Shown: piece by piece, positions 12,799 to 43,797 of the stretch
How the letters are laid out: every line of letters starts with the position of its first letter
How positions within the stretch are numbered: position 1 is the first letter of the stretch
Source of the DNA: a virus
DNA length: 64,000 nt
Strand: one strand, 5' to 3'
Virus record (IMG/VR): IMGVR_UViG_3300020202_000076
Span: 1-64,000 of that record
The notes under the pieces: generated by a model
The model's database searches: none
The model's input: only the letters and a program-made list of their open reading frames with translations
What the model was told of the DNA's origin: nothing
Program-made: the position numbers and the translations under genes

Positions 12799-13491
12799 AT
12801 GAAGTACACGCTCGAAATCAGACCGGCCGAGGGCGGCGATGACGCCAAGCTCTTTGTCCACGACCTCGTGAGCGCCTATTCGCGGACCTTCCTCAAGCTC
12901 GGCTGAAAGCACCGGGTCGTGCGACAGCGCGCGGCCCCTATCGGATTCTTCGACGCCACCCTGGAAGTCGAGGGCGACAGTCGCTTGGAGGCCGAAGCCG
13001 GCGGCCATCGCATCCAGCGCATTCCGCCGACCGAGCGGCGCGGGCGCGTCCACACCTCAACCTGTACCGTCGCTGTGCTCGGCAAAGCCGCCGAGGCGGA
13101 CCCGCGCTACCTGATGCGCGCGGACGGTGATTTCCGGGTCGAGTGGTTCAGCGGCACCGGCAAGGGCGGTCAGCACCGCAACAAGCATCAGAACTGTTGC
13201 CGGCTGTTCCACAATCCCACGGGCATCAAGAAGGAAGCCCAGACCCGATCGCGCGAAAGCAGCCTCAGAGAGGCGCGGGCGGCGATGATCGCGGAGCTAG
13301 ACCGGCGGATTGCTGGCGAACAAGAAGCGGTCCTGTCGGACACCCGACGCGGCCAGATGGGCTCCGGCATGAGAGGCGACAAGGTGCGGACCTATCGGTT
13401 CCAGGACGACGTGGTGAAGGATCACCGAACCGGCCGCACCGCCTCGTGCGAGAAGATGATGCGCGGGAACATGGACGCGATCTGGGGCTGA
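12799..13491 (+). CDS. RF1-type peptide chain release factor interrupted by one in-frame UGA
   Basis: Read through codon 36 (TGA, 12904-12906), the frame gives 230 residues of a short class I release factor. It lacks the N-terminal domain of RF1. The codon-recognition motif is PxT-type (P76-P77-T78 in RIPPTERRG), as in RF1, which reads UAA and UAG. The catalytic GGQ is at 123-125 (TGKGGQHRNK). The 23 residues ending YSR align without gaps to RF1, which puts the UGA exactly at the tryptophan of RF1's SRRWRV. Both parts are in one frame, so no frameshift is needed. It is either a TGG-to-TGA nonsense mutant or a gene expressed through UGA read-through. Reinitiation at GTG 12919 would give a truncated protein. 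Confidence 0.8.
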
Positions 13492-21700: not shown

Positions 21701-21763
21701 CGCGCCTCCGCCGGACACCGGCATCGGGCCGATATCCTGGAGGAGGTCGCTGAACAGGTTCAC
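15707..21763 (-). CDS. 2018-residue polyvalent virion protein with metallopeptidase-like and ART-like domains
   Basis: This very large chain looks like an injected polyvalent phage protein. The N-terminal third is Ala/Pro-rich linker with hydrophobic helices (about 120-290). Around 410-470 lies a winged-helix-like segment. LKTLNHEIVHFF (His789-Glu-x-x-His793) is a zinc peptidase motif. At about 915-1120, HGSPHDFEEFS, YGWGLYFA and GIPGIRYLDG with NYVIFDD match ADP-ribosyltransferase modules of polyvalent proteins. The last third is helical and matches LPD38-like associated domains (FPDFMLANAMRDSLASWVV). It would enter the host with the DNA and act early. Confidence 0.8.
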   Translation of the reverse strand: MNLFSDLLQDIGPMPVSGGGAPVPKAAPSLSGLLDDLTSDIRPPPPVETSSPFFASGRRGFSRFKQGAAGVAADLGVMAPESAAQTIAEQERYQQSIPAPPETQEAMRQMSEAQSVSDFLGGLIKSPGALFSIMGESIGQAGPGMAAALPAALGGPLAFGAAAGVTSGATEYASSVLDALREAGIKLDDAQSVTSGLSDPEMMAKAREHAVKRGVPVGLFDGLTAGFAGKILRMAGGPKSTARFVGRAAGEAGMQATGGAAGEAGAQLVSEGQIKRPGEVALEAIAEIPTGVVETAVGSSRQQPSVPGAEPGQAPLVPADELVERAHAAVAPQPAPISAPPVEPAETPIPMPDKSGTQMPDLSAAPVAPDPSAAPVEMPAAPPPALPAQDDMGAITERLRALVSDLDAPSAAPDPVAAAVAQLEPGKPVTNRYIAQAAGKEANLDQVKASLAQQGLIEQKGKAWVRAANPQAPAPVAPAAPVSPANQDRATPPGVSAEAEPISLTGAELGEHADIRSLRDAATRYFEDNLQGRSVNNADLGKPISFDKKGKKKTIFGAGEDLLRAIPALPQLLERGKKISSEPEADPRSDVKVWHKLKASADVGGQRRDLIMTVREMRDGTFHYALNKDRDAVAGPRDSEIPEGGSSFERTAPNALESRPGDDLNIEVGSNFDNPTSERRADTPSKTEGETVSWQVAPDLKAEYRVSPEWTAKRSQAAEAMVEIARQMAPNKKLAVNVADKLTGGTGENRGAVLGAYNERSLESIVSLAMQDQDGKSRGTRDLIKTLNHEIVHFFKQSGLFTQEEWNILKAAARGWMQKYNIGERYSDLSREQQIEEAIAEARAAYSVGDLKVAPGIRRLFDRIAQFLSRVKNWMQGNGFKSWQDVMEAVGSGEIGSREQGRSGRSDSSMHAAWHGSPHDFEEFSLHKIGSGEGNQAYGWGLYFAGNKKVAEYYRDNVSDDAYLAAVNKRLTDLSREMDKYRAGEYGKFNDPRGYEVKAEYDRLMEERAGKKGRLYQVDLAPAEDEYLDWDGPQSDKVGDRLRAAFAGANMPHRAMQSAEGRMIYRELTGWLGDELGIGRSPKAASEWLAKAGIPGIRYLDGSSRDKGDGPRNYVIFDDKLVKVTAKFQRAQERWSDTLNAERNVSVTPAQMDQARGSLFQRAEQKKGSSQQEEIISRIMGSTDKPFGQKLREFFAHWKENIGREFRQGVFDQYDAIAEAEKSLNQGKLLSAEVSAYKRARMLNSGGVIHTLMTSGMVQWKDGRWQKREGFEGGFNAIFEPLAKKGLLRLWQGWAIANRSKRLIQEGRESLLSQSDIDELLKLGEQYPEFREVQRKWARFNSAVLDMAEQSGLVSKDARAVFEKDDYVPFFRILEGEEVTPRGKRGLAGQRAGIKKLEGGEEQINDLMMNMVRNVSHLVDASMKNMAAQSAAELGVKVGALDRRGVVDAEPDVPSDVPDADKKGYADILKTRPSKDRSGFTVMYDGKPVSFTANDPFFLRSMTAIHWPGFNDGMMKIFGGAKNLLTRTVTVFPDFMLANAMRDSLASWVVTGGRTNPWKAAKGFVDSLKDSTSAQALREGGADAVGFYGTDPIGKARELNRLDEGKAARNALRSWWEKWEAVGKASDNANRLALYDRLIKEGASPAEAAYQAMDLMDFSMRGDMTALRYLTAVVPFLNARLQGLYKLGRSANETPRSFLFRGSLIMGASLALMLSNMGDPDYEKIPDQEKDNNYHIKIGDTWFKFPKPFEVGAVFSTVPERLTRWALGQDDSQRLRKRMLRVFADQLSLDPTPQLVKPILEQAMNKVGFTGQTIETEAMRNLRPGERVSDQTSGLAKSLGALAPEVVSPVRVDAALRGYFGTLATYLMGASNVVHDAVTPGERAARRIEDTPVIGRFMRQASGRSSQYMTDFYDLQTEIRQIAGSVRSLQKLGRTEEARELAKDNPGILQQARMADRTSDQIAQIRQRIRQIQADTKMDGAKKRSEIDQLTDRMSAIAQQGYTRLKTSREGSLRSASR

Positions 21764-31038: not shown

Positions 31039-31490
31039 CAGGAGCCTCGCAGGATCTGCCATTGCTGGGCGGTGATGCAGGAGAGAAGGGCCGAGGTCCC
31101 GACGCCGAGCGTGACGCTCGCATTGGTGCCGGCCGTGCCGATCCGGGCCCCGGTCTGCGGCCATACCGAAGCCGCCGCCGTCCCGGTCATCGCGACGAAT
31201 ACCTGTCGTCCGGGCCTTGCCCCCGGAAGCAGAAACGCGCCGGTCCCGACCGTGCCCGTTGTCAGCTCGGCGAGGTCGGCCGAGATCGGCGTCGCCGTCG
31301 CCTGCGATGTCCCCGTCCCCGTCCCGGTGATCACGGCGAAGGAGCGGTTGGCGAAGTGAGGAATCCCGGGCGGGAAGGAAAACTTGTTGGTCTCCAGCTC
31401 GGTCAGCGTGCGCTCGACATTGCCCGTCAGCTCTTGCGCCCAAGGAATGACCTGCGCCGCATTTCTGGGTGCGGCCGGGAGACGCGCCAT
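31038..31490 (-). CDS. Tail-module protein, Thr/Gly-rich
   Basis: This 150-residue protein has a helical N-terminus (VIPWAQELTGNVERTLTELE) and a beta-rich Thr/Gly body (AVITGTGTGTSQATATP, AVASVWPQTGA-like). Both ends overlap with neighbours. It may be a tail appendage or fibre-connector. Confidence 0.5.
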   Translation of the reverse strand: MARLPAAPRNAAQVIPWAQELTGNVERTLTELETNKFSFPPGIPHFANRSFAVITGTGTGTSQATATPISADLAELTTGTVGTGAFLLPGARPGRQVFVAMTGTAAASVWPQTGARIGTAGTNASVTLGVGTSALLSCITAQQWQILRGS

Positions 31491-32128
31491 CAGCCCGAGG
31501 ACATGCCGAGATCGAGGCCGATCAGCTCGGAATTGCTCTCGGCATTGACGCTATCGATCTCGGCATCGGCGATCGCCTGCCAATATTCCTGCTGCGGCGA
31601 GTTGCGCAGCCACTCATAGGCGTAGCTGGCGCAGATCGCGCGGATCAGGCGCGGGTTCTTCTGGGTGAGCCAGGTCGTTTCCGTCGCCGTCCCCAGGGTC
31701 GGCATGTCCTTGTAGAAGACGAAGCGGTAGGCGTAGGTGCCGTCGAGGCAGGACGGAAACGCCGCATTGGTCCCGACCGCCGCCCAGATCGCCGGGAAGG
31801 CGGTCCCCAGGAGTCCCGTCGTCCCCGAATAGAACCGCGCCTGCTCCATCTCCTCCACGGTCTTGGGCACGATGATCTGCGCCGTCGGCGCCGTGAACTC
31901 GAACTTGGACGCCGCCCGGAAGCCGGCAGGAAGCGGGATCTCGCTCTGCCCGGTGGTCGCGGTGCCGACATGGGTGGACAGCATCTCGCGGGCGCGCAGC
32001 CTGGAATTGAGATAGGGCTGCGCGTCGTCGAGGATCGTGTCGGGATCGATCGACGAGTTGTTGACGAACGATTTGAGCGACCCGCTGCTTCCCTTCTCGT
32101 TGACCAGCGCCGAGTAGGTCATCGCCAT
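31490..32128 (-). CDS. Head-tail adaptor, SU10-type
   Basis: This 212-residue protein follows the SU10 adaptor layout: AQPYLNSRLRAREML near the start, IPLPAGFRAASKFEF, a central beta part ending YRFVFYKDMPTLG, then TTWLTQKNPRLIRAICASYAYEWL and a final helix QEYWQAIADAEIDSVN. Such adaptors bind under the portal ring. Confidence 0.65.
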   Translation of the reverse strand: MAMTYSALVNEKGSSGSLKSFVNNSSIDPDTILDDAQPYLNSRLRAREMLSTHVGTATTGQSEIPLPAGFRAASKFEFTAPTAQIIVPKTVEEMEQARFYSGTTGLLGTAFPAIWAAVGTNAAFPSCLDGTYAYRFVFYKDMPTLGTATETTWLTQKNPRLIRAICASYAYEWLRNSPQQEYWQAIADAEIDSVNAESNSELIGLDLGMSSG

Positions 32129-32131
32129 GGG

Positions 32132-33790
32132 CTACTCCGCAGCGGCCTGCATCTCGACGAGCTTCTGGTCGCCAGCGGTGATGGTGATCGAGTGGCCATC
32201 TTCGATAAGATGGGCCGCCGCATCCGCGAAGTCGCGAGCGACCTCCGCCGGCAGCAGAGCCAGGATCGCCTCCACCGTATCCTCGACGGTGATGTTGGCC
32301 TGGCATAGAGCCGCCCCGGTCACCTTGTCCTGGTTGCAGCGCGACCAGTCGTAGTGAAGACGGTGGCAGGGATAGCAGGCCGTCGAGCCCGCAACAGGCG
32401 TGAGGGCTTTGGTCCTCGGCCAGTGCTTCGTCAGATTCTCTTCGCTCGAATGCGAGAGGAAGACGACCTTCGGGATGTCGAGATGGCTGACCGAGTTGAG
32501 GACGCCGGTCTCGGGGCCGACGACGAGGTCGACCTTTCGCGCCAGCGCCATGGTTCCGCGGATCGGCCACTCCCCGCAGGTCCGGACGATCCGTTGCGCA
32601 TCGCCGAAGAACAGCTTGGCCGAGTCCTGGACCTGCACCTCCAGATCCTTGTGCTTTTCCTCTCCCGCCAGGATCACCGTCGCCGTCGGGTGTTTGTAGA
32701 GCAGACGGACGATCGCGGGCGGGGTGTGCGGCCAGATCTTGTGCGGGGCCGAGCCGCCGACGATCCAGAGGATCACCGGACCCGACAACCCTTTCAGGAT
32801 TCCTTCCACCCGCTTCTCCTCTTCCTCGGTCGGGTAGAAGGCGGGCTTGAAGACATGCGGGAGGCCGGCGATGTCGTGCTGACGTTCGAGATAGTTCTTG
32901 TCGTAGAGCTTCCGCCTCACCTCGTCGGTATGCTTGTCGTGCAGCGAGCCGGGAAGCGTGAGCAGCGTCGCCTCCACGCCCTCGCACAGATTGACGGTGC
33001 GGTCGTAGCGCTTGCCCATCTCGTCCCAATAGGGGCCGAGGGCTTCGTTCGGGACCTGTCCCTCGTCCTGGATGATGAAGGCATCGATGTTCGGATCGTT
33101 CTGGACCACGCTCATCCCTCTGGGCGTGGTGTTCAGCGTGACGTGCCAGCCCTCGGCCTTGAGCCCGGCGGCGACCGACGATGCCTGGATCAGGTCGCCG
33201 AAGGCGCCATAGCGGATCAGCAGGCAGGATTTCTCCCTCTTCGCCCACGGCTTGACGTTCTGCTGGAAGTCGTCCCTCTTCCGCCAGACTTGGAATTGCG
33301 AGTATTCCTCGCCGCCGTTGCGCGTCTCGTTCTCCAGCAGGTCCCAGCCCCCGAGACGGCGGAAGACCTGCACCATCTCATGCGGCCAGATATCGGCCTT
33401 GTGGTCCGGGTTGGCTCCCGGCTGCCCGACCCTTGGATAGAGATCGGGATGCGGCCAGTAGAGCGTGAGGAAGCCGCCGGGCTTGACGATGCGCCACCAC
33501 TCGGCGATGGCCTTGGGCCACTCCTTCACATGCTCGATGAAGTGCGAGGAGATGACGAAATCCTGGGAGGCATCGGCGATCCCGGTCAAGGGGCCGCCGC
33601 CATCCATGTGATAGTCGGCGACCCTCTTGCCGCCGTAATCCTTGCCGGAGTCGAGCGTCATCCAGTGGCCGAACCACCGAGCCTGGCCCGAACCGATGTC
33701 GATCCCCTTCCCTCTCGTATAGGGGACGACCAGCGGATAGATCTTGGCCAGCTCCTGGCCGGTCGAGTCGATCTTGATGTTCCAGACCAC
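32132..33790 (-). CDS. Methyltransferase-glycosyltransferase (GT9) fusion
   Basis: The first about 180 residues are a class I SAM methyltransferase-like domain (GIDIGSGQARWFG, FVISSHFIEHVKEW, IVKPGGFLTLYWPHPD). The rest is a GT9/heptosyltransferase-like domain (CLLIRYGAFGDLIQASSVA, ILWIVGGSAPHKIWP, LVVGPETGVLNSVSHLDIP). It sits between adaptor and decoration genes. It may modify a sugar on the virion or on host surface polysaccharide; both are inference. Confidence 0.75.
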   Translation of the reverse strand: MVWNIKIDSTGQELAKIYPLVVPYTRGKGIDIGSGQARWFGHWMTLDSGKDYGGKRVADYHMDGGGPLTGIADASQDFVISSHFIEHVKEWPKAIAEWWRIVKPGGFLTLYWPHPDLYPRVGQPGANPDHKADIWPHEMVQVFRRLGGWDLLENETRNGGEEYSQFQVWRKRDDFQQNVKPWAKREKSCLLIRYGAFGDLIQASSVAAGLKAEGWHVTLNTTPRGMSVVQNDPNIDAFIIQDEGQVPNEALGPYWDEMGKRYDRTVNLCEGVEATLLTLPGSLHDKHTDEVRRKLYDKNYLERQHDIAGLPHVFKPAFYPTEEEEKRVEGILKGLSGPVILWIVGGSAPHKIWPHTPPAIVRLLYKHPTATVILAGEEKHKDLEVQVQDSAKLFFGDAQRIVRTCGEWPIRGTMALARKVDLVVGPETGVLNSVSHLDIPKVVFLSHSSEENLTKHWPRTKALTPVAGSTACYPCHRLHYDWSRCNQDKVTGAALCQANITVEDTVEAILALLPAEVARDFADAAAHLIEDGHSITITAGDQKLVEMQAAAE

Positions 33791-33793
33791 GCG

Positions 33794-34006
33794 CTACCTC
33801 GCCTTGGGCGGGCGGCCAACGCGGCGCAGCGTCGGCTCGACCGGAGAAATCGCGGCAGGCACATCGGCCGGCGCCGCGGGCGCGGGAGGGGTGACCTCCC
33901 GGCCGTTGGCATCGAAGCAGATGTTGTCCTGCACGAAGGCTCCCCCGGGACCTGGCGGGCACATCAGCCCGTAGGACCGGGAGAAGTCGATCATGCGAGG
34001 GGCCAT
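33794..34006 (-). CDS. Small virion-module protein
   Basis: This 70-residue protein (IDFSRSYGLMCPPGPGGAFVQ) has an Ala/Pro-rich C-terminus ending in RVGRPPKAR, an AT-hook-like basic motif. The start overlaps the upstream stop (TAATG). Confidence 0.5.
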   Translation of the reverse strand: MAPRMIDFSRSYGLMCPPGPGGAFVQDNICFDANGREVTPPAPAAPADVPAAISPVEPTLRRVGRPPKAR

Positions 34007-34182
34007 TACTTCTTCCCTTGGTGGCCGACGGCGCCGCCGTAGTTGAAGCTGTCGGCGATGCCGGCATAGGGGGCGCTCTGCTTGTCGGGCGCGGCCAGAT
34101 CGTTGCTCGGCTCGGTCGAGACGCCCGTGTCGTTATTGACGACCTTGGTCGACGGCTTGTCGCCGTGGCGAAGGATGCTCAT
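34006..34182 (-). CDS. Small virion-module protein
   Basis: This 58-residue frame (SILRHGDKPSTKVVNND, ending GGAVGHQGKK) sits between the paralogous decoration-like genes and the 33794 gene, with an overlapping stop/start. It is hydrophilic and probably disordered. Confidence 0.5.
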   Translation of the reverse strand: MSILRHGDKPSTKVVNNDTGVSTEPSNDLAAPDKQSAPYAGIADSFNYGGAVGHQGKK

Positions 34183-34195
34183 CGTTCTCTCCTGA

Positions 34196-34579
34196 TTAGC
34201 CGGCGAAGCTGCCGGTGTAGGTGGGGAAGTACTCGTAGTTGACGGCGATCACCGAGGTGGCATCCGTGCCCTTGGTCGCGAAGGTCTGCGAGCCTGCGGG
34301 CAACGCGATCGGCGCCGACTGCGAGAAGGTGCCGAAGGTGGTCCCGGCCGTGGTCGCGAGATCGACCGTGCCGAGCGCCGTGGTGCCGACCGTGACGGTC
34401 AGGGTATTCGCGGTCTCGGTGCCCGCGACGACGATGCGATACGTCGCCTGGGTAACCGTGATCGCGAAGGGATTGACCATCCGGCAACTCATCACAGAAG
34501 CCGTTGCCGGCGTCTGGTACGTCGCCGAATGCCGAGCCAGATAGCTCGGCTGCATGTAGTTGAAGGACTGAACTGGCAT
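34196..34579 (-). CDS. Virion surface (decoration-like) protein, paralogue 1
   Basis: This 127-residue protein (PVQSFNYMQPSYLARHSATYQ) has a basic/aromatic N-terminal arm followed by a Thr/Gly-rich beta domain (RIVVAGTETANTLTVTVGTTALGTVDL). It is equal in length and parallel in pattern to the gene directly upstream. The position next to the capsid gene supports a decoration role. Confidence 0.6.
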   Translation of the reverse strand: MPVQSFNYMQPSYLARHSATYQTPATASVMSCRMVNPFAITVTQATYRIVVAGTETANTLTVTVGTTALGTVDLATTAGTTFGTFSQSAPIALPAGSQTFATKGTDATSVIAVNYEYFPTYTGSFAG

Positions 34580-34603
34580 AGGCCTTACTCCTTCTTTCCG
34601 GGG

Positions 34604-34987
34604 CTAGGCCGTGACATCGCCGAAGGGCGTCGGGTAGTACTCGTAGGCGACGTTGATGTTCCCGACCGCATCGGCGCCGCGGACGGTGTAGATCTCCCCG
34701 CCCTTGGCGATGGCGACGCTCGCCGCGACCGCGAAGGTCCCGGTGGAGGTGCCGACCGTGGTGCCGAGGGAGATCGTGCCGACCGCGGAACCGCCGGCAT
34801 TGACGATGTAGGTGTTCACCGCCGTTCCCGTACCCGCCGTGACCACGCGATAGGAGGCCCCGGTGAAGGTGATCGGAAACTGGGCGACGAAGCGGGCGAC
34901 CGTACCGGAGACAGCCGTCCCGGTGTCGACCGAGTGGAAGCGCCGCGCATTGTAATGCGGGTGCATGTAGTCGAAGTTGATGGGCAT
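34604..34987 (-). CDS. Virion surface (decoration-like) protein, paralogue 2
   Basis: This 127-residue protein (PINFDYMHPHYNARRFHSVDT) repeats the architecture of its downstream neighbour: arm, then RVVTAGTGTAVNTYIVNAGG, then VGTISLGTTVG. The pair must come from a tandem duplication followed by strong divergence. It is the gene next to the major capsid gene. Confidence 0.6.
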   Translation of the reverse strand: MPINFDYMHPHYNARRFHSVDTGTAVSGTVARFVAQFPITFTGASYRVVTAGTGTAVNTYIVNAGGSAVGTISLGTTVGTSTGTFAVAASVAIAKGGEIYTVRGADAVGNINVAYEYYPTPFGDVTA

Positions 34988-35008
34988 AGGCTGCTCCTGA
35001 AACGAGAG

Positions 35009-35030
35009 CGGCCCGCGCTCTGGCGGGCCG
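35009..35030 (-). terminator. Strong hairpin downstream of the capsid gene
   Basis: CGGCCCGC (35009-35016) pairs with GCGGGCCG (35023-35030) around a 6-base loop. Leftward the sequence continues CTCTCGTTTC, a weak U-tract. It could be a partial terminator or a 3' stabiliser that sets capsid mRNA level above that of the decoration genes. Confidence 0.45.
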
Positions 35031-35054
35031 GCTCAGGTTGACGAGGAAGGAAGT

Positions 35055-35074
35055 CGCCGCGTGACTACGCGGCG
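35055..35074 (-). repeat. Hairpin spanning the capsid stop codon
   Basis: CGCCGCGT (35055-35062) and ACGCGGCG (35067-35074) are perfect inverted repeats with a 4-base loop, and the capsid TAG lies inside. Together with the hairpin at 35009 it forms a two-stem 3' structure. Confidence 0.45.
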
Positions 35075-36036
35075 GAGTCCCATTTAATTATCCGACTGTT
35101 CGTGGCGCCGCTGTCGTTGGTCGCGGAATACATGATCCCGAAACCTTCGAGCGCGTACCACGCAACACCGAGGTCGCGGCCGTAATCGCCGGGGATCTTG
35201 CCGCGGATCTCCGGAGGAACGGCGATGATCTCGGCCGCCGTATCGGCGCCCATGAAGTACGCCCAGTCGGAATGGCCAGACGACCAAGCCGTGCCCGAGT
35301 TGTTGACGCCCTTGAGGATATTCGTCTGCTCGATGGCGCGGCAGGTGTCGTAGCGGCCGATCTCGCCCTTGAGGATCTTCTGGTAGCCCGACTCGGTGTA
35401 CTGGTAGACGCCTTCGAGCTGTTCGCGGATGGGCTCGAAAGTGGTCGGGCGGCCGATGACGGCGTAATCATCCGCGGCGAAACCTGGGATGTTGCGCTCC
35501 TTCATGGTGTTGACGATCGCCCGCCAGTGGTACTTGTTGAGCGCGGAGGCGTTGGTCGCCGTCGCCGTACCGTTGGTGGTGAGCACGCCCGCATGCGCGG
35601 TGCCGGTGCCGACGTAGCGCAGAAGGCAGTTGTTGAACTGCGCCTGTGCGCCGCGGTCCAGGGCTTCGCGAGCGTCACGCGCGAGGATGTTGCGGGTGAC
35701 GGCGGTCACCGACTGGCGGGAGTAGAGATCCACCAGGGAGGTGAACGGAACGGCGATGCCCCATTCGGTGATGGTCGCCGTGCCCTGCTTGACCAGGAAG
35801 TTCGACTGCGGGATGGCCGTACCCTCGGAGAGGGTGGTGCCCGACTGCTGGAGCTTCGAGTAGACGTTCCAGGTGACGAGCTGGCCGTTGTTGAGGCCCT
35901 TGTCGGAGAAGTCCTGCGCGTCGCACAGGGGGCGGAATTTGGCGGAGGCGCGAACCTCGGTGCGCATGACATCGGACAACTCGTCCGCGTACATGAAGCC
36001 GCCGAGGGTGTTCGTGCCCCAAAGCTGTCCAGCCAT
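35065..36036 (-). CDS. Major capsid protein, N4-gp56 type
   Basis: This 323-residue protein matches the N4-gp56 capsid family: MYADELSDVMRTEVRASAKFR, QLVTWNVYSKL, ITEWGIAVPFTSLVDLY, LNKYHWRAIVNTMKERNIPG, DYAVIGRPTTFEPI. It would assemble into the HK97-fold head shell. ATG 36036 is the start that gives the family-typical N-terminus. Confidence 0.85.
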   Translation of the reverse strand: MAGQLWGTNTLGGFMYADELSDVMRTEVRASAKFRPLCDAQDFSDKGLNNGQLVTWNVYSKLQQSGTTLSEGTAIPQSNFLVKQGTATITEWGIAVPFTSLVDLYSRQSVTAVTRNILARDAREALDRGAQAQFNNCLLRYVGTGTAHAGVLTTNGTATATNASALNKYHWRAIVNTMKERNIPGFAADDYAVIGRPTTFEPIREQLEGVYQYTESGYQKILKGEIGRYDTCRAIEQTNILKGVNNSGTAWSSGHSDWAYFMGADTAAEIIAVPPEIRGKIPGDYGRDLGVAWYALEGFGIMYSATNDSGATNSRIIKWDSAA

Positions 36037-36057
36037 GGGAGTTACCTCGTAAGGATG

Positions 36058-36075
36058 GCGCGCTTGAGAGCGCGC
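36058..36075 (-). repeat. GC hairpin between scaffold and capsid genes
   Basis: GCGCGC (36058-36063) pairs with GCGCGC (36070-36075) around TTGAGA. It lies in the 49-base space between the scaffold stop and the capsid start. It could be a processing or stability element that raises the capsid segment. Confidence 0.4.
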
Positions 36076-36085
36076 GTTGATGGGA

Positions 36086-37297
36086 TCAGCGGGGGTAAGC
36101 GCGCTCGCGCTGGTCCTCGGCCACGATCTGTGACGCCGTTTTACGGGTGGCCACTTTCGGGGTCGGACGGGCGGTCGCGGCTGCCGGCACCGGCGGCGCC
36201 CCGCGCTTGGCATCCAACCTCTGTTGGGTAGCCGGCGGGGTAGTCGGGGTGACCGGGGATTCTTTCGGCCGCACGAAGGTGTTCTCCACGTCTTCGGCGG
36301 CGGTACGGAAAATGGTTTCGAGTGAACGGCCACGGAAATCCACGGCGTTGCGGAACTTGGCGTGCCAGCCGGCGATCTGCTCCTGCGGCATGGCATTGAC
36401 GCGGACGGGATCGGCACCCGCCTCGATCAGGTCTTCCCTCATCATGCGCGAGGACTGCGCCGCGACGGCGGCACCCAGGCGTTCATCGGCAAACACCGCC
36501 TGATGCTTGGCGGCGATCTCGCCGAAGGTCTCCTCAAGGCGCTGCTGCTGGTGCTCCTGGCGGTAGGTCGATTGTGCGATCTGCTGGATCTGCTCGGCCG
36601 TGAGCGTCTGGACGGGCTGCGCCGGAGCCGGCGTCAGGATCTTGCGGAGGACCGCCTTGATCTCGTCCTCGGAGCCGTGAAGAACCGCCTTGGCTGCCTG
36701 ATCCACGACATCGTCGATGCTCGGCGCCTGTGGCGTCGGAGGCGACGCGGGTGCGGCCGGAGCTGCCGGAGGCGTCTGGCGGCCGGCTTGCTCAAGGACG
36801 CGCTCTGCTTCCGCTCTCCGGGCGGTTGCTTCTTCGAGGCGCTTCCTTGCCGCGCCTTCGAGCTGATTGATGCGGATGCCTTCCGCGACCGTGACCTCGC
36901 GCTCCTGGCCCTCGATCTTGATGACCATCTTCGCATCGGCCGGGATGTCCTGCGGCTGGCCGTTGACCATGATGCGGATGGTCTGCGGGGCCGGAGGCGC
37001 GACCGGAGCGACGGGCTCGGCCGGCGCGGGCTCATCCGCGACAGGCTCGGGTGCAGGCTCCGCCGGCTCCTCGGGCACGCCGTCGGGAACCGGAACCGCG
37101 ATATGGCCGAACTCGGCCTTCCGTGCCTCGGCGATCTTCTTTGCCGCCTCGTCCTCGATCGCATCGCGTGCGTCGGGGGAAGAAGCAGGCGGACGATTGC
37201 CGAGTTCGACCTCGGCGACCTTCGGCACTTCGATCATGGAAGCAAGCGACGGAGCCGGCACGCCCGTTGGGGTGGCACCGGGGGGATGCGTGGTCAC
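36086..37297 (-). CDS. Scaffolding protein
   Basis: This 403-residue protein lies directly upstream of the capsid gene. It has the typical acidic, Pro/Ala-rich N-terminus and long central coiled-coil stretches (QREVTVAEGIRINQLEGAARKRL, YRQEHQQQRLEETFGEIAAKH). It ends with a basic tail (RKTASQIVAEDQRERAYPR). Scaffolds guide capsid assembly and then leave the head. Confidence 0.7.
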   Translation of the reverse strand: MTTHPPGATPTGVPAPSLASMIEVPKVAEVELGNRPPASSPDARDAIEDEAAKKIAEARKAEFGHIAVPVPDGVPEEPAEPAPEPVADEPAPAEPVAPVAPPAPQTIRIMVNGQPQDIPADAKMVIKIEGQEREVTVAEGIRINQLEGAARKRLEEATARRAEAERVLEQAGRQTPPAAPAAPASPPTPQAPSIDDVVDQAAKAVLHGSEDEIKAVLRKILTPAPAQPVQTLTAEQIQQIAQSTYRQEHQQQRLEETFGEIAAKHQAVFADERLGAAVAAQSSRMMREDLIEAGADPVRVNAMPQEQIAGWHAKFRNAVDFRGRSLETIFRTAAEDVENTFVRPKESPVTPTTPPATQQRLDAKRGAPPVPAAATARPTPKVATRKTASQIVAEDQRERAYPR

Positions 37298-37353
37298 GAA
37301 TGAGACTCCTTCAAAGGGATGCGGCTCCTCACGGAGCTGCGGTCAGCCGGTGT

Positions 37354-37662
37354 CTAGCCGGCGGATTCTTCGATGCCTTGCGAGGCATTGAACGCCTGCT
37401 CGGCAAGCTCGCCTCTCTGGATGGTTCCGTTCATCCAGGTTTCGATGTCGTAGAAGCGCTTCACTTCGCCCTGCAGCCTGGCGATCAGCCCCGCGTTCGT
37501 GGGGTCGGCCTTGACCAGCTCCTCAGTCGCCGCGAGCGCGGCGAGCCGGGCGGTCTCGACCAGCCACTGGTAAAGGACCGTCTGCCTTGCGCCCCGGAGC
37601 TCGACGGCAAGGCGGACATCGGCGAGAAGCCTCCTCTGCTCCTCGGAATATTCTTCGCTCAA
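37354..37662 (-). CDS. Small helical head-module protein
   Basis: This 102-residue protein is all-helical (SEEQRRLLADVRLAVELRG, LYQWLVETARLAALAATEEL). It overlaps the portal gene by ATGA. Its position between portal and scaffold is often held by small head accessory proteins. Confidence 0.55.
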   Translation of the reverse strand: MSEEYSEEQRRLLADVRLAVELRGARQTVLYQWLVETARLAALAATEELVKADPTNAGLIARLQGEVKRFYDIETWMNGTIQRGELAEQAFNASQGIEESAG

Positions 37663-39824
37663 GCCGCCGCCCTCTCCGGCTGGTTGAACTCGGCGATCAA
37701 CCCTCCGAGGTGCTGGCGGACCTGTGCCGCCCGGTCCTGCGCGCTGATGCGCTCGCGGCTGGCGATCTCCATGCCCGTGCGCTCGGTCTCGCCGGCTTCT
37801 TGAATCTCGGTCTTGGCGATCTCGCCCTGGATCTTCTCCTGGTTGCTCGCGAGCTTCTGCTCGAGCTGGGCGATCTGCTCCTGCATCGCCTGCATCTGCT
37901 GCTGGACCTCGGGCGGAAGGCCGGATTCCTGGAGCTTGAAGTCGAGGAAGCGCTTGCCGTCCTTGTATCCGGCAAGGCCGAACACTTCCTTGGTGATTGC
38001 CTCGAAGCCAGGGGACTCGACGACCTGCGGCCCATAAACCTTCACCAGGGGCTCGCCAATCTTGAGCACCGATCCGAGAGCCCCCATGAACCGGCCCAGC
38101 CTCTGCTCCGGATTGGTCGCACCGATGCCGACATTGACAGTCGTCGTCAGCTCGGCCGAGAGAAGATCGTCGGTCATCGGATCGATGTTGTAGCGCTGCC
38201 AGGTCTGTGCCTGCTTTCCCGCCAGGGCGATGACGGTCAAATCCGTCTCGTAGCGCTGCACGAGCTTGACGGCCTGTGTAAGCGTGGGCTCGACCCAGGT
38301 CTCGGCGAAGATGCGAAGGTCGTACTCGCCGAGGGTATTGGCGCCTCCCGCAAGGAGGTTCATGCCGCCGACGGTCTCGTTCAAGTCCCGGTTCGACTGC
38401 ACCGACGACCCGGAGAACTGGCCCGCCAGGTCGTCGAAGTCCAGGTTGAGCATGTTCTGCTCTTGATAGGACGACGCCGTGACATCGGGCGGGCGGACGA
38501 AGCTCACCACATCATTGGGATTGCCGGGAACCTGGACGACGCCGCCGACCCGCGAGCTGGTAAGGGCCCTGAGATCGATATTGCTTGCGCTCTTGACCAG
38601 CACCTTCGGTTCGAGCGCCTGGAACACGTTGTCGAGCCGCAAATTCTCCAGGTGGTTCGCACGAACCTGAAGGTCGAAGACGAGGCCCACCTTGGATTCT
38701 GGGAAGAGCCGGAACGCCTCGATCTGCCCCACGCCCCAGGTGAAGGGCCGCTCGTCGAGGAAGTAGACCTCCTTCAGCGGACGAGGATCGGAAAGGATCT
38801 GCTGCGTTCCAAGGGTGTAGAACTGCCAGTCCTCGCCGTCGCGGCGGATGATGTTCTCATGCACCCAGACCAGCGCCATCTCATTATCCGAGGGCGATGC
38901 CGCCGCCTGGTCAGAGAACCGATCCTGTCCGCCCTCGCGCTTCTCTCTCAGACCCAAGGTCTCATCGACGAGCGCCCCGGCAACGGCCTGGGGCGAGACT
39001 TCACGCCATGTCGGCTGGCCGGTCTTGGGGTCCTTGAGCTTGGATCTCTCCCGGACCTGCGCCACGTACATCGGAAAGCGATAGATCAGATAGGGCGAAA
39101 GCTGGATCGGGTTGAGCCAGTCCGCGCCCGGATGAATGCGCATGTTCTCCGGCGGGATGGGCTGGATGACCAGATCGTCGCGGACGATCTTCCTTGTCTC
39201 CTCCTCCATCATCGCCGGGGCGCCGGTCACGTCGTCGAGGCGCTGTTCTCCCGTGTAAGGATCGAGCACGGGCACCCAACGGCCGGTCTTGGTGACCTTC
39301 TCCTCGAAAGCCCAGTATTGCTTGGAGCAGCAGACCCCCATGACATTGGCGGTCTGATACTGCCCCTGGACGATGCGGAACCACGGAATCTTCTTGGTCA
39401 GGCGATATTGCAGGATCGCCCCGGTGATCTCCGCCCCCGCCCTTTCCTTCTCCACGCTGTCGTCGACCGGCGCGACATTGACCACGTCCTGGGTCGAGAA
39501 AAAGGCGCGGGCGCAGTCGGCTTCGGACCGGCGCACCATCGAGCGGGTCTTCGGCCGGAACAGCCGCGAGCGCGACCTGTATTCGTCCGCGAGATAACGC
39601 GAGCCGGAGGCGTGCTTGGACTGGAAGTGGTCGATATCCCGAGCCCAATGCTTCTGCACGAAGCCCGTCAGGAAGTCGGTCGACTCGCGATAGGCGTTCT
39701 GGGCCTGCTTGAGGAAATCCTCGTCGGTCGGCGGCGTGTCGCCGGCCGGTCCGTTGGCCGGCGGAATGTCTCCTCCGAGCCCGTTCTCCAGCATTGCTTC
39801 GGACGAGGCATTGACGATCGACAT
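37659..39824 (-). CDS. Portal protein
   Basis: This 721-residue protein resembles P22/SU10-type portals. An N-terminal helical part has DIDHFQSKHASGSRYLADEY and SRLFRPKTRSMVRRSEAD. A central wing contains IPPENMRIHPGADW and PYLIYRFPMYVAQV. The C-terminal stem/barrel has coiled-coil helices (EQIAQLEQKLASNQEKIQGE). The portal forms the dodecameric DNA gate and docks terminase. Confidence 0.8.
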   Translation of the reverse strand: MSIVNASSEAMLENGLGGDIPPANGPAGDTPPTDEDFLKQAQNAYRESTDFLTGFVQKHWARDIDHFQSKHASGSRYLADEYRSRSRLFRPKTRSMVRRSEADCARAFFSTQDVVNVAPVDDSVEKERAGAEITGAILQYRLTKKIPWFRIVQGQYQTANVMGVCCSKQYWAFEEKVTKTGRWVPVLDPYTGEQRLDDVTGAPAMMEEETRKIVRDDLVIQPIPPENMRIHPGADWLNPIQLSPYLIYRFPMYVAQVRERSKLKDPKTGQPTWREVSPQAVAGALVDETLGLREKREGGQDRFSDQAAASPSDNEMALVWVHENIIRRDGEDWQFYTLGTQQILSDPRPLKEVYFLDERPFTWGVGQIEAFRLFPESKVGLVFDLQVRANHLENLRLDNVFQALEPKVLVKSASNIDLRALTSSRVGGVVQVPGNPNDVVSFVRPPDVTASSYQEQNMLNLDFDDLAGQFSGSSVQSNRDLNETVGGMNLLAGGANTLGEYDLRIFAETWVEPTLTQAVKLVQRYETDLTVIALAGKQAQTWQRYNIDPMTDDLLSAELTTTVNVGIGATNPEQRLGRFMGALGSVLKIGEPLVKVYGPQVVESPGFEAITKEVFGLAGYKDGKRFLDFKLQESGLPPEVQQQMQAMQEQIAQLEQKLASNQEKIQGEIAKTEIQEAGETERTGMEIASRERISAQDRAAQVRQHLGGLIAEFNQPERAAA

Positions 39825-40160
39825 CTAGTGGAAGCGCGACTTGAGTTCGAGGGTGCGGAGCTGGTCCATGTCCGCCTTCCCGCGCTTGACGAAGAAGCGC
39901 TCCAGGATCTCGCCCCCCGCCTTGATCGCGGCGCGGCGAACATCGTTGTGCGAGTAGAGGTCGGTGAGTTTGAGGTAGTAGCCGCACTGCTCCGACAGCA
40001 TCCAATGCTGGATGATGACCATGCCGACGGTCGGCGCCGAGTTGACGTGGACGTAGAACTTATGGCCCGGATATTCACGCGACAGGATGCGGGAGATTTC
40101 CGAGGCGAAGGTGATGTCGTTCAGGGTGTGCGCGTCGTAGAGCGCGACTTCTTCGCTCAT
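39825..40160 (-). CDS. Head-module protein
   Basis: This 111-residue protein (SEEVALYDAHTLNDITFASE) has a beta-strand centre (YPGHKFYVHVNSAPTVGMVII) and a helical end (RAAIKAGGEILERFFVKRG). ATG 40160 overlaps the upstream stop by ATGA. No function is known. Confidence 0.5.
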   Translation of the reverse strand: MSEEVALYDAHTLNDITFASEISRILSREYPGHKFYVHVNSAPTVGMVIIQHWMLSEQCGYYLKLTDLYSHNDVRRAAIKAGGEILERFFVKRGKADMDQLRTLELKSRFH

Positions 40161-40465
40161 GCGTAGAGCTTCCGCGCCGTCTCTTCGAGGTCCTTGCCCA
40201 GCACCCACGCAATGGCCGGGGCGCCGCGCTTGCGAAGCTTCTCGCCAACTCGAACGTCGAAGGCGTTGCCGTATTCGCGACCGTCTAGAGTTTTGAAGTA
40301 CCAAGCAACATACTGAAGCCGGCACGGCATGCCGCCGAAATCGAAGATGGCCATCGGGAACAAGGCCCGCACCTGACGCGCCAGCCGCATATCGGCTTTG
40401 GGCGCGTACTTGACGCCGCGGTCCCAGTCACCGCCGTTGACCTGCCGCCCGATCCTCCCGCTCAT
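40157..40465 (-). CDS. Head-module protein
   Basis: This 102-residue protein contains ARQVRALFPMAIFDFGGMPCR, YVAWYFKTLDGREYGNAFDV and a basic helical C-terminus. The start overlaps the upstream stop. Its role is unknown. Confidence 0.5.
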   Translation of the reverse strand: MSGRIGRQVNGGDWDRGVKYAPKADMRLARQVRALFPMAIFDFGGMPCRLQYVAWYFKTLDGREYGNAFDVRVGEKLRKRGAPAIAWVLGKDLEETARKLYA

Positions 40466-40653
40466 CGCTGTATCCCGCAGGTCGTGGTCGGCACATGCGT
40501 TCCGGGCATCACCGTGGCGTCGTGTCCCCAATCCCAGGCGATCGGCGACATCTGCCGCTCCCGCCGGTATTCGGTCTGGAACCGTTCGGTCTCCACCCGG
40601 ATCCTCTCTTTCTGGCCTGCCGTCATGCGTTCCAGCATCTCCTCGTAGGTCAC
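40462..40653 (-). CDS. Small helical protein
   Basis: This 63-residue protein has one long charged helix (MLERMTAGQKERIRVETERF) followed by a Trp-rich tail (PIAWDWGHDATVMPGTH). Both ends overlap neighbours. Confidence 0.45.
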   Translation of the reverse strand: MTYEEMLERMTAGQKERIRVETERFQTEYRRERQMSPIAWDWGHDATVMPGTHVPTTTCGIQR

Positions 40654-40862
40654 GGGTCCACCACTTCGAGGGCGAGCGTCTTTCCCATCGCGCGGGCCAG
40701 CCGCTCCAGGGAGTCGTAGGACGATCCGTGCGCCTCATCGAGGGCGCGCGTGACGATGATCGGCGCCACGCCGGCCTTGCGCGCCAAACCCGCCGGGGTG
40801 AGGCCGCTGTCGGCCATGGCCTGCGCCAGAAGCCGCTTGGCCTTCGTTCGTGTCGGGCTCAT
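40650..40862 (-). CDS. HTH regulator embedded in the virion operon
   Basis: This 70-residue protein is an XRE-like HTH (LLAQAMADSGLTPAGLARKAG, VAPIIVTRALDE, YDSLERLARAMGKTLALEV), the form of small antitoxin-like regulators. A regulator among head genes is unusual. No toxin partner is recognisable beside it. Confidence 0.65.
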   Translation of the reverse strand: MSPTRTKAKRLLAQAMADSGLTPAGLARKAGVAPIIVTRALDEAHGSSYDSLERLARAMGKTLALEVVDP

Positions 40863-41059
40863 AGCCACGAGTAGGGCTGTCCCGGCTGCTGCGTGGTCGA
40901 GAAGCCGCGCTTGTTCGAAAACACGTAGGTGATCGGCTGGACCGAATCCTTGGCCCATTTCGGATCGGCCTGGACGACCAGCGACTTCATGTCGCCCGGA
41001 GGCGGCGTGCCGCGCTTGGTGCGGTCGAAGACGCGGTAGACAATGGGAAGGTCGTTCAT
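40859..41059 (-). CDS. Small head-module protein
   Basis: This 66-residue protein (NDLPIVYRVFDRTKRGTPPP, then VQPITYVFSNKRG) is beta-rich and overlaps both neighbours by ATGA-type junctions. It sits beside the HTH gene, and a functional link cannot be judged. Confidence 0.45.
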   Translation of the reverse strand: MNDLPIVYRVFDRTKRGTPPPGDMKSLVVQADPKWAKDSVQPITYVFSNKRGFSTTQQPGQPYSWL

Positions 41060-41436
41060 CGTTCCTCCAATGCCTTCACGCGCCCGTCGATCAGTCGGAC
41101 GGCAGAGCCGAGCGGCGGCAAAGCCTCGGAGAGAGTCGTCGCCGCCTCGGCCTCGGTAACCAGGTCGTCGACCACGGCCGACGGATCGGGCTCGACTTCG
41201 GGGGCCACAACCGGCGCGGCGGGGCGGTAAGGTTTAAGCGCCTCGACGATCCTGAGCGAGTCCTTGGCGATGGAGGAGCGGTCGCTGACCGATTGCCACC
41301 GGCCATGCTCGGCATCGATGTACGTCCAGTCCGCGTCGCTGAATTGACTGGCGAGGGTCGCAGCCTGTGCAGGCGAGAGGTCGTTTCGGTTCTGACGGTA
41401 TGCGGTGAAAGCGGCGCGGAACCCTGCGGGGATCAC
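41056..41436 (-). CDS. Hypothetical protein, GTG start
   Basis: This 126-residue protein (IPAGFRAAFTAYRQNRNDLS) is helical with a Pro-rich middle and a coiled-coil-like end (LTVAEAATTL-type, VRLIDGRVKALEER). GTG 41436 overlaps the methyltransferase stop (GTGA). Confidence 0.5.
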   Translation of the reverse strand: MIPAGFRAAFTAYRQNRNDLSPAQAATLASQFSDADWTYIDAEHGRWQSVSDRSSIAKDSLRIVEALKPYRPAAPVVAPEVEPDPSAVVDDLVTEAEAATTLSEALPPLGSAVRLIDGRVKALEER

Positions 41437-42632
41437 GCCGCCCTCCGCCTGACATGCTCGTGAACCGTTGGAAGAGGCACGATGAACCGCGTGGTCGGAT
41501 GCTTGTCGGCGATCATGGAAGCGTAGCGCCAGGCGAAGACCAGGACGGCGCTTGGCTTGTCCTTCTCCAGCCTGTCGCCCGGGTGGATAGGGATCTCGTA
41601 GCCAGGGCCCTTGAGGAAGGGGGGCTTGTCGGCGGTGTTGTCGTCGTAGAGGCAATGGATGCGGTGCTGAAGGCCGAGCTGATGCAGGAGGGCTACCGTG
41701 CCGACGGAGGCGCCGTAGCCGGCGATGGTCTTGCCCTCGCGGTCGATCAGGCGATGGACGGCGGCGCGGAGGTTTTCGATGCGCTCGGCGAAGCCTGAGA
41801 GCGCGGCCTGGACATTCACCGTCCGACTTTCATGTGGCGAATGCTGGAACGCCCGCCCGCGACCGATAGAGACACGGATTGAGCCGCCCTTGGTATCGAC
41901 GCGGTCAGTACGACTAAGCCCCATCGCGCGCTGGGCGAAGTGCGCGCCGAGAGGATTGATCGCGAAATAGCTCACATGCTCCGGATAGATCGTATCCAGC
42001 AGCATCTTCTCGAACACGTCCGGGCCGTATTGCGTTTCGAAGACCAGGGCGCCGTCGGTGCTCAGCAGGGTTTCGACCCCCTCGGTGAAGACGCTCAGAT
42101 CCTCAAGGTTCGCCAGCACGTTGTTGGCGATGATCAGATCGGCCGGGCCTTCGGTCGCCAGGATCTCCCGGGCAATTCCCGCCCCGAAGAAGCTTGAGAG
42201 CGTCGGAATGCCCGAGGCCGTCGCTTCCCGTGCGATCTTTGTCGCGGGGTCCACACCCAGAACCCGCAATCCCTTTTCCTTGAAGCAGTGCAGCAGAGAG
42301 CCATCGTTGCTGCCCACCTCGACAACCAGATCCCCGGTCTTCAGGTCGTGCCGATCGATCAGCGTCCGGGCCAGCTCGCGGAAGTGGTCGACCAGACCGG
42401 GGGAGGATGAGGTCCGATAGACATAGGTGCCGTAGTTGAACTCGGGGTCCAGCATGTGGCTGGTCTGGACGTGCCCGCATTCCTTGCAGAGCATGAGGTT
42501 GAGCGGGACCATCTCGAACACGTCGGACTTGAGGTTAGGCGATGTCGCCGGCATGGGCTTCATCGGCACGGCAAGATCCAGATCGGTGGAGCGGCAGAGA
42601 ACGCAGTGGGTGATGGGGCGATGGACGGTCAT
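41433..42632 (-). CDS. Sugar C-methyltransferase-type enzyme
   Basis: This 399-residue protein has the three-part structure of nucleotide-sugar C-methyltransferases. First comes an N-terminal zinc site (THCVLCRSTDLDLAV with CKECGHVQ). A SAM domain follows (VVEVGSNDGSLLHCFKEKGL, VLGVDPATKI). The C-terminal domain has IAGYGASVGTVALLHQL. The substrate would be a deoxysugar linked to a nucleotide. It stands in a sugar-modification block between head genes and terminase. Confidence 0.75.
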   Translation of the reverse strand: MTVHRPITHCVLCRSTDLDLAVPMKPMPATSPNLKSDVFEMVPLNLMLCKECGHVQTSHMLDPEFNYGTYVYRTSSSPGLVDHFRELARTLIDRHDLKTGDLVVEVGSNDGSLLHCFKEKGLRVLGVDPATKIAREATASGIPTLSSFFGAGIAREILATEGPADLIIANNVLANLEDLSVFTEGVETLLSTDGALVFETQYGPDVFEKMLLDTIYPEHVSYFAINPLGAHFAQRAMGLSRTDRVDTKGGSIRVSIGRGRAFQHSPHESRTVNVQAALSGFAERIENLRAAVHRLIDREGKTIAGYGASVGTVALLHQLGLQHRIHCLYDDNTADKPPFLKGPGYEIPIHPGDRLEKDKPSAVLVFAWRYASMIADKHPTTRFIVPLPTVHEHVRRRAA

Positions 42633-42880
42633 CTGGCCCTCTTGATGTAGGGGCGCAGCCGCCACGCGACGAAGTTGTCTCGTGCGCGCCGAAACCCCTC
42701 AAGAAGCAAGAGCGGTCCGAGACCACAGGCTGCGCCCATGCCAACAAGAGCAAAGGCCGCGATCCAGTAAGGCACGCCATCGACTAGGCTCATCTGCCAA
42801 GCCGATAGCCCGAAGAAGGCGAGTGTCAGCGCCATCTGGACGGCCAATCTCCAACCCTTCGTCTGTCCGGCGAGGATCAC
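42629..42880 (-). CDS. Small inner-membrane protein
   Basis: This 83-residue protein has two transmembrane segments (LAVQMALTLAFFGLSAWQMSL and WIAAFALVGMGAACGLGPLLL) and a basic C-terminus. GTG 42880 overlaps the GT2 stop. It could anchor the sugar enzymes or act in lipid-linked sugar transfer. Confidence 0.5.
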   Translation of the reverse strand: MILAGQTKGWRLAVQMALTLAFFGLSAWQMSLVDGVPYWIAAFALVGMGAACGLGPLLLLEGFRRARDNFVAWRLRPYIKRAR

Positions 42881-43797
42881 GCAGCCACCCTTTCTTCCCG
42901 CTTCATCTCGTCGAGCTTGTGCCGGGCCTGCGCCCATCCGAGGGCGTGCTCGATCAGCCCGCTGTAGAGCCCTTCCCGCGCCTTCTGCGGCCAGGTCTTC
43001 TCATCCATCTGCGATGCACGATGGAACATGCGCGCCAGCGTGCGGCTGATGTCGCACCAGATCCGCTCCTCCAGGATCTGCTTCTCCAGGGCCGTGCTCG
43101 CCGCCCTCAACTGCCCTTCCAGCCCCGCATTGCCGGCATCCACATGCTTGACGTGGCAGGCCAAAGGCTCGGCGATGACGAACAGCCCGTCCCGGCACGT
43201 GGCGAAGTAAGGCAGCCACACATCGGGGATCACGTCGTCGATGAGCGGAAACTCTTCGAACAGTTCACGCTTCCATGCGCAAGAGCACGATCCCCCGACC
43301 CGATCGGAGATCACCCGGGACGGATCGACGAAGCCCGTCTCCTTGGGCCATATCGTCTGCTGCACCATCTCCCCTGGGCCCGGCATCGGATTGTCAGGCG
43401 TGGTGAACAGGCAGTGCGTCCCGACATAGGAGGCGCCGGATATGCGGAAGGCCTCGACCACCCGCTCGACTCGATTGGGAAAGTTCAGGTCGTCCGCCCC
43501 AAGCGTGAGGTAGATGTCCGCCTCGACCTGCCTGTGTATCCACCGGAGATGCGCGTTGAGCCCGGCCAGCCCGTAGGCCGTGCGGTCGGGGCAGTCGTAG
43601 ACGACGACGTGATGCTTGTGCTGCTTGCCGACCAGGATTTCCTTGACGGCATCCATGGTGCCGTCGGTCGAGCCCTGATCCGATACGACGATGGACAGGC
43701 CCCGGTAGGTCTGCGCGAGGGCCGACTTCAACGCCTCGCCTATATGTTTCGCTTTGTTACGGGCAGGAATGACGAGCGCGACGCGCGGATCAGGCAT
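42877..43797 (-). CDS. Family 2 glycosyltransferase (GT-A fold)
   Basis: This 306-residue protein starts RVALVIPARNKAKHIGEAL, with VVSDQGSTDGTMDAV and the metal-binding region IYLTLGADDLNFPNRV. These are hallmarks of GT2. It would transfer a sugar from a nucleotide donor to an unknown acceptor. It lies next to terminase, away from any recognisable polysaccharide operon. Confidence 0.8.
   Translation of the reverse strand: MPDPRVALVIPARNKAKHIGEALKSALAQTYRGLSIVVSDQGSTDGTMDAVKEILVGKQHKHHVVVYDCPDRTAYGLAGLNAHLRWIHRQVEADIYLTLGADDLNFPNRVERVVEAFRISGASYVGTHCLFTTPDNPMPGPGEMVQQTIWPKETGFVDPSRVISDRVGGSCSCAWKRELFEEFPLIDDVIPDVWLPYFATCRDGLFVIAEPLACHVKHVDAGNAGLEGQLRAASTALEKQILEERIWCDISRTLARMFHRASQMDEKTWPQKAREGLYSGLIEHALGWAQARHKLDEMKREERVAA

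What the first reader, a model, noticed from the sequence alone, without database searches (positions are those of the whole stretch)
32132..43797. Sugar-modification enzymes embedded in the virion module
A methyltransferase-GT9 fusion (32132-33790), a sugar C-methyltransferase (41433-42632), a two-helix membrane protein (42629-42880) and a GT2 (42877-43797) sit among adaptor, decoration, portal and terminase genes. Three of these overlap by ATGA/GTGA and so are co-translated. Phages are known to glycosylate their own capsid or tail proteins with enzymes encoded near structural genes; host O-antigen conversion usually uses a flippase set that I do not see. I infer a virion glycan-decoration or surface-modification system.
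Basis: inference. Interest (0 to 1): 0.75.

Follow-up and report, generated by a model that had tools for sequence, protein, structure and literature searches.

The report
Phage virion sugar-tagging enzyme cassette
This uncultured phage carries, among the genes that build its particle, a two-part enzyme (methyl transferase plus heptose-type sugar transferase) that stays at the same place in many related phages but is absent from all 50,697 catalogued phage records searched, so these phages probably put methylated sugars on their own particles, which has not yet been shown.

Summary
A methyltransferase-GT9 fusion (32132-33790), GT2 (42877-43797), small membrane protein (42629-42880) and sugar C-methyltransferase (41433-42632) lie in the late operon of an SU10-type podovirus, with GTGA/ATGA overlaps.

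They are two different things. The fusion belongs to a large, previously unlabelled phage family: 104 of 144 GT9 reading frames fetched carry the same fusion. Of 48 relatives found through the major capsid protein, 33 carry the GT9 gene, always behind the capsid gene and, where detected, directly before the adaptor. It is inherited with virion genes and under purifying selection, yet has no match in 50,697 phage records. The window's closest relatives add HldE (directly behind the fusion) and GmhA, so the donor is probably ADP-heptose. The model matches WaaF, WaaC and TibC; four invariant cysteines resemble the iron finger of TibC, a protein heptosyltransferase. The protein behind the capsid gene models as a phage cement protein.

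GT2, membrane protein and C-methyltransferase are an accessory set found only here; relatives carry different sugar enzymes.

Best explanation: virion proteins receive a (methyl)heptose. Donor, acceptor and methylation target are inferred; host LPS modification is not excluded. New variant of known phage virion glycosylation.

The parts
32132..33790 (-). MT-GT9 fusion: residues 1-~175 class I SAM methyltransferase, ~187-516 GT-B glycosyltransferase (GT9), Cys472/475/485/496 finger; conserved virion-cassette gene
   Evidence: Pfam; AF2 model pLDDT 91.2; structure matches; invariant Cys
33794..34006 (-). Small protein with GRPPK tail, of a family that is core in the clade with or without GT9; directly upstream of the fusion
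   Evidence: HMM hit 6e-16; also in Vibrio 1.232.O (L012) and PTXU04 (L013)
34196..34579 (-). Thr-rich decoration/cement-like protein, paralogue 2; candidate glycan acceptor
   Evidence: DECO HMM 2e-34; 40% identical to paralogue 1
34604..34987 (-). Thr-rich decoration/cement-like protein, paralogue 1; candidate glycan acceptor
   Evidence: AF2 model pLDDT 82.7; best structural matches include phage cement/capsid chains of KHP30, KHP40, Pam1 (Z 9.6-8.6)
35065..36036 (-). Major capsid protein; alternative acceptor (Thr-rich loop TNGTATATN)
   Evidence: phrog_1357 1.8e-17; loop alignment
31490..32128 (-). SU10-type adaptor, directly downstream of the fusion
   Evidence: SU10_adaptor 4.2e-15
36086..37297 (-). 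Scaffold-like protein
   Evidence: Position and 33% identity to relatives
37659..39824 (-). Portal
   Evidence: SU10_portal 2.1e-41
41433..42632 (-). Sugar C-methyltransferase (accessory), Zn-ligand-type Cys10/13/49/52 present
   Evidence: D-mycarose 3-C-methyltransferase 4rv9 5.7e-52, TcaB9 9.2e-44; cysteines
42629..42880 (-). Small membrane protein of unknown family (accessory)
   Evidence: No Pfam or PHROG match; hydropathy
42877..43797 (-). GT2 glycosyltransferase, soluble, with GADD motif (accessory)
   Evidence: Glycos_transf_2 5.5e-14; sequence; no membrane segment
43807..45330 (-). Terminase large subunit, 9 nt upstream of GT2
   Evidence: phrog_2 2.1e-34

Best explanation
The MT-GT9 fusion is a late, soluble, bifunctional virion-modification enzyme. 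During assembly its GT-B domain transfers a heptose from ADP-heptose to Ser/Thr residues of an abundant virion protein (cement protein 34196-34987 or the capsid protein), and its SAM-dependent domain methylates the sugar. The donor comes from the host pool or, in relatives, from phage-encoded GmhA and HldE. GT2, the small membrane protein and the C-methyltransferase would extend or vary the glycan in this phage. Shown: gene content, predicted folds, synteny, co-inheritance, purifying selection, and HldE/GmhA genes in relatives. Inferred: donor, acceptor, methylation target, the role of the accessory genes and the benefit to the phage.
For: Same fusion in 104 of 144 GT9 ORFs fetched. Fixed place between the capsid/cement/small genes and the adaptor in diverged phages, with members also in lambda-type heads. 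Of 48 capsid-anchored loci with at least 4.5 kb downstream, 33 carry GT9, 27 with MT. Presence needs only 3 changes on the capsid tree against 11.5 in shuffles. Distances correlate with portal, adaptor and head-closure genes (0.75, 0.75, 0.80), close to virion-virion pairs. dN/dS 0.05-0.14 in most pairs. HldE lies directly behind the fusion and GmhA upstream in the closest relatives. Heptose genes occur in 4 of 35 GT9+ records not chosen for them, against at most 47 of 50,697 catalogued phages. GT9 part matches WaaF Z 23.7, WaaC 20.7, TibC 19.7. Four invariant Cys in the TibC order. A TylF sugar O-methyltransferase is a neighbour in 9 of 60 loci. Cement-like fold next door.
Against: No glycan has been observed. 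WaaF and WaaC, both LPS enzymes, match better than TibC. Some cellular GT9 enzymes also have C-terminal Cys clusters, so the finger does not prove a protein acceptor. The window phage itself lacks GmhA and HldE. Linked genes co-inherit whatever their function. Thr/GTxT enrichment behind the capsid gene is matched by the capsid protein itself and is not specific; the capsid TNGT loop association rests on 3 independent contrasts.
Confidence: 0.52

Rival explanations
1. Host-surface modification: the late-made MT-GT9 (with GT2, membrane protein and C-MT in this phage) adds a methylated heptose to LPS core, blocking superinfection or stopping progeny from sticking to debris.
For: GT9 is chiefly an LPS heptosyltransferase family and the best characterised structural matches are LPS enzymes. 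The accessory set has a membrane protein. Named carrier contigs belong mostly to Pseudomonadota.
Against: No GtrA in the record. The fusion has no membrane segment. Its position is fixed in the virion cassette and it is co-inherited with virion genes, unlike mobile serotype-conversion cargo.
Confidence: 0.25
2. Two separate systems (compatible with the best explanation for the fusion): MT-GT9 modifies the virion, while the GT2/membrane protein/C-MT set is independent cargo that alters host surface glycans.
For: The set lies at a variable site between terminase and portal, lacks close viral relatives and no part of it was found in the closest relatives' contigs, which are fragments.
Against: In L008 a C-MT lies between MT and GT9 genes, so C-MT can belong to the same pathway.
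Confidence: 0.3
3. Other target: the enzymes modify phage DNA or a host protein, or the fusion is a non-catalytic assembly factor.
For: Phage glycosyltransferases that modify DNA are known (own knowledge); not every class I MT-like domain is active.
Against: No thymidylate-synthase-type enzyme in the record; many residues of both domains are nearly invariant and the gene is under purifying selection; GT9 substrates known to me are glycolipids and proteins.
Confidence: 0.08

Closest known systems
Virion glycosylation of mycobacteriophages (Che8, Rita; Freeman et al. 2023, as cited in PMC11256854 and PMC10877033)
   Same: Phage-encoded glycosyltransferases; capsid and tail-tube proteins carry glycans.
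   Different: Here a single MT-GT9 fusion in SU10/P22-like and some lambda-like heads, mostly in phages of Gram-negative-type bacteria where a host is named, fixed beside the adaptor, with ADP-heptose genes in relatives; no glycan shown. Maravista, an F1 relative of Che8, has its GTs near the 3' end of the genome.
BAHT protein O-heptosyltransferases (TibC/AAH; PMC4358343)
   Same: GT-B ADP-heptose-type fold (Z 19.7) and four Cys in the same order (C-x2-C ... C ... C).
   Different: TibC has an N-terminal beta-barrel; here a methyltransferase domain. No autotransporter. TibC ranks below WaaF and WaaC structurally.
ADP-heptose:LPS heptosyltransferases WaaF/WaaC (GT9)
   Same: Best characterised structural matches (Z 23.7 and 20.7).
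   Different: E. coli WaaF, WaaC and WaaU lack the C-terminal Cys cluster, have no MT fusion and no place in a phage virion cassette.
TDP-sugar 3-C-methyltransferases (D-mycarose 3-C-methyltransferase 4rv9, TcaB9)
   Same: Full-length match 5.7e-52 and Zn-ligand-type cysteines present.
   Different: No NDP-sugar epimerase-family enzyme in the record; phage setting.
Gtr O-antigen conversion modules
   Same: A GT2 next to a small membrane protein.
   Different: No GtrA, no polytopic GtrC seen; GT2 hits the GtrB-like PHROG only at 0.0033.

Membership tests
GT9 (ADP-heptose glycosyltransferases) | Glyco_transf_9 domain above the family cut-off | tested here: met
   23.5 bits with neighbours in the frame; 21.7 alone against cut-off 22; L014 member 31.9
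GT9 (ADP-heptose glycosyltransferases) | GT-B fold like WaaF/WaaC | tested here: met
   Z 23.7 (1psw, rmsd 4.1 over 280 residues) and 20.7 (2h1h, 4.0 over 264)
GT9 (ADP-heptose glycosyltransferases) | Heptosyl transfer from ADP-heptose | not testable with these tools
   Indirect only: HldE/GmhA in relatives
BAHT (TibC) protein heptosyltransferases | Four-Cys iron finger near the C-terminus | tested here: met
   C472, C475, C485, C496 in 133-134 of 134 members; TibC 339, 342, 358, 370. Met for the Cys pattern only; metal not tested; not exclusive to BAHT
BAHT (TibC) protein heptosyltransferases | N-terminal beta-barrel domain | tested here: not met
   N-terminal domain models as a class I methyltransferase
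BAHT (TibC) protein heptosyltransferases | Dodecamer modifying an autotransporter | not testable with these tools
   No autotransporter gene was noted nearby; oligomer unknown
Phage virion glycosylation systems | Phage glycosyltransferase gene linked to virion genes | tested here: met
Phage virion glycosylation systems | Glycan on capsid or tail protein | not testable with these tools
   Needs mass spectrometry
Gtr O-antigen conversion | GtrA flippase | tested here: not met
   PF04138 no match in the record; control genomes ring
NDP-sugar C-methyltransferases | Methyltransf_13/23/14 domains and Zn cysteines | tested here: met
   (Methyltransf_13 at 30.7 bits, cut-off 31.3)

The most novel reading that the evidence does not exclude
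A large uncultured lineage of tailed phages has a near-core, dedicated cytoplasmic O-heptosylation and sugar-methylation system for its own capsid or cement protein, fed in some lineages by a phage-encoded ADP-heptose pathway.
Probability: 0.4. Interest if true: 0.82.

Novelty: new variant of a known kind. Interest (0 to 1): 0.64.

Why it matters
Virion glycosylation is documented for few phages. Here a single enzyme family, absent from every catalogued phage record searched, recurs next to the capsid genes of many uncultured phages and of contigs assigned to bacterial species, including Paraburkholderia. If it glycosylates virions, surface sugars are a standard part of these particles and may affect adsorption, stability or recognition. 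The Paraburkholderia carriers make it directly testable.

Tried and rejected
Single-sequence scans with the fusion, terminase and GT2 found no viral relatives. Thr/Ser or GTxT enrichment as an acceptor signature: significant for the first post-capsid protein but equally so for the capsid protein, so not specific. Capsid loop TNGT (61 of 77 GT9+ against 1 of 12 GT9-): only 3 independent contrasts, inconclusive. Cement family only with GT9: 0 of 15 GT9- loci, but its profile was trained on GT9+ loci and other cement-like genes occur there, so not used as proof. Cys finger as proof of a BAHT: rejected, since some cellular GT9 enzymes have similar clusters. HldE/GmhA in GT9+ against GT9- records: 7/38 against 0/12, p 0.17, not significant alone and partly ascertained. 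DNA modification: no thymidylate-synthase-type enzyme. Small protein 33794-34006 as part of the sugar system: rejected, its family is also in GT9-less relatives. No paper describing this family was found in the open-access library.

Full report
Observation. The four genes exist as described. The window is almost all of a 64.4 kb virus record. The late operon reads, on the minus strand: terminase, GT2, small membrane protein, sugar C-methyltransferase, small genes, portal, scaffold, major capsid protein, two cement-like paralogues, small genes, MT-GT9, adaptor. Overlaps GTGA, ATGA, GTGA and ATGA link GT2 through to the second gene after the C-MT.

Two layers. Relatives Vibrio phage 1.232.O and Escherichia phage PTXU04 share portal, capsid protein and terminase but no GT9 gene was found in them (the search had no positive control). 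Between terminase and portal they have only short genes or, in PTXU04, a tail fibre. GT2/membrane protein/C-MT therefore occupy a variable site, and no viral contig with a close GT2 was found. C-MT relatives exist at 27-33% identity.

The fusion is a phage family. In L008 the MT, C-MT and GT9 are three consecutive genes. An alignment of the two GT9 domains found 103 viral contigs (80 kept) and 13 contigs assigned to bacterial species, including Polaromonas, Paraburkholderia, Zoogloea, Nevskia, an acidobacterium and an armatimonadete; three of the 13 are distant cellular-type GT9s. Of 144 GT9 reading frames, 104 carry the MT in the same frame. Neither the window protein nor relative L126 matches anything in 50,697 phage records.

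Synteny. In 60 dereplicated loci, many of them fragments, clusters around the gene are capsid protein (32 loci), portal (31), scaffold (30), head closure (29) and adaptor (28, in 22 of them immediately downstream). Some members lie in lambda-type head clusters. To avoid selecting on the gene itself, I collected loci by the capsid protein: 33 of 48 loci with at least 4.5 kb downstream carry GT9, 27 with MT. GT9-less relatives often go straight from the small protein to the adaptor. Presence needs 3 changes on the capsid tree (shuffles 11.5). GT9 distances correlate with portal, adaptor and head-closure distances at 0.75-0.80 and with the capsid protein at 0.49, against 0.60-0.84 for virion-virion pairs. 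dN/dS is 0.05-0.14 in most pairs, 0.38 in one. This is what a gene tied to the virion would show, though linkage alone also gives co-inheritance.

Donor. The window's closest relatives (L107-L111, capsid protein 68-69%, fusion about 50%) carry HldE between the fusion and the adaptor and GmhA upstream, as far as each contig reaches. HldE or GmhA occur in further lineages (L008, L073, L130, L047/L048). Excluding records chosen because they had these genes, 4 of 35 GT9+ records carry them against at most 47 of 50,697 catalogued phages (p 5e-8; sensitivities differ between profile and BLAST searches, and two of the four are close relatives). The window has none, so it would depend on a host pool. 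Its host is unknown; its IS1595 transposase is nearest to alphaproteobacterial ones, which is weak evidence.

Enzyme. The AF2 model (pLDDT 91.2) has a class I methyltransferase (best Z 16.3) and a GT-B domain closest to a Veillonella GT9 (Z 24.1), WaaF (23.7), WaaC (20.7) and TibC (19.7). Four cysteines are invariant in the order of TibC's iron finger, a part needed for TibC assembly and activity (PMC4358343). E. coli LPS heptosyltransferases lack it, but some other cellular GT9s have similar clusters. The N-terminal beta-barrel of TibC is replaced by the MT, so I do not file it as a BAHT.

Acceptor. The Thr-rich protein behind the capsid gene models as a beta-sandwich whose best matches include cement/capsid chains of podoviruses KHP30, KHP40 and Pam1 (Z 9.6, 9.1, 8.6), only a little above the level of chance matches noted by the tool. 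It and the capsid protein are the leading candidates. Sequence-signature tests did not single out either.

Accessory enzymes. Neighbours of the fusion in other phages include TylF (9 of 60 loci), GT2, GT4, MptE-like and FkbM enzymes, consistent with a variable glycan built around a conserved first step. The window's C-MT is a full-length homologue of D-mycarose 3-C-methyltransferase.

Verdict. Virion sugar-tagging is the best reading of the fusion (about 0.5), LPS modification the main rival. Phage virion glycosylation is known, so this is a new variant of a known kind.

Noticed in passing
window 12919-13491: A peptide-chain release-factor-like protein (RF-1 domain 2e-14, GGQ motif) encoded in the phage's non-structural region.
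   Followed up: no
window 10615-10890: A Cas2-like small protein (PF09827, 3.7e-4, below cut-off) with no Cas1 noticed nearby.
   Followed up: no
window 8207-9175: IS1595-family transposase, nearest to Methylobacterium and Rhodovastum copies (under 60% identity).
   Followed up: partly
L064:17968-19278 and 14 other loci: A PurD/GARS-like ATP-grasp protein (about 436 aa) conserved in the tail-gene region of MT-GT9 phages; function in a virion cassette unexplained.
   Followed up: partly
window 15707-21763: 2018-aa polyvalent protein with LPD3, LPD38 and a weak ADP-ribosyltransferase domain.
   Followed up: no
window 33794-34006; L012:9384-9836; L013:11480-11956: Short core protein family with variable C-termini just before the adaptor gene; in L025 it is in one frame with a TylF methyltransferase.
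   Followed up: partly
L144, L156, L165, L172: MT and GT9 as separate genes (L144, L156, L165), and a second GT9 gene (L172): the two domains are separable modules.
   Followed up: partly
L023:6098-7147: MptE-like (PF01973) protein, a family I associate with flagellin glycosylation, beside a GT4 and the MT-GT9.
   Followed up: no
window 35065-36036 (loop near residues 145-165): Capsid loop reads NGT in 61 of 77 GT9+ phages but 1 of 12 GT9- ones; too few independent contrasts to interpret.
   Followed up: partly
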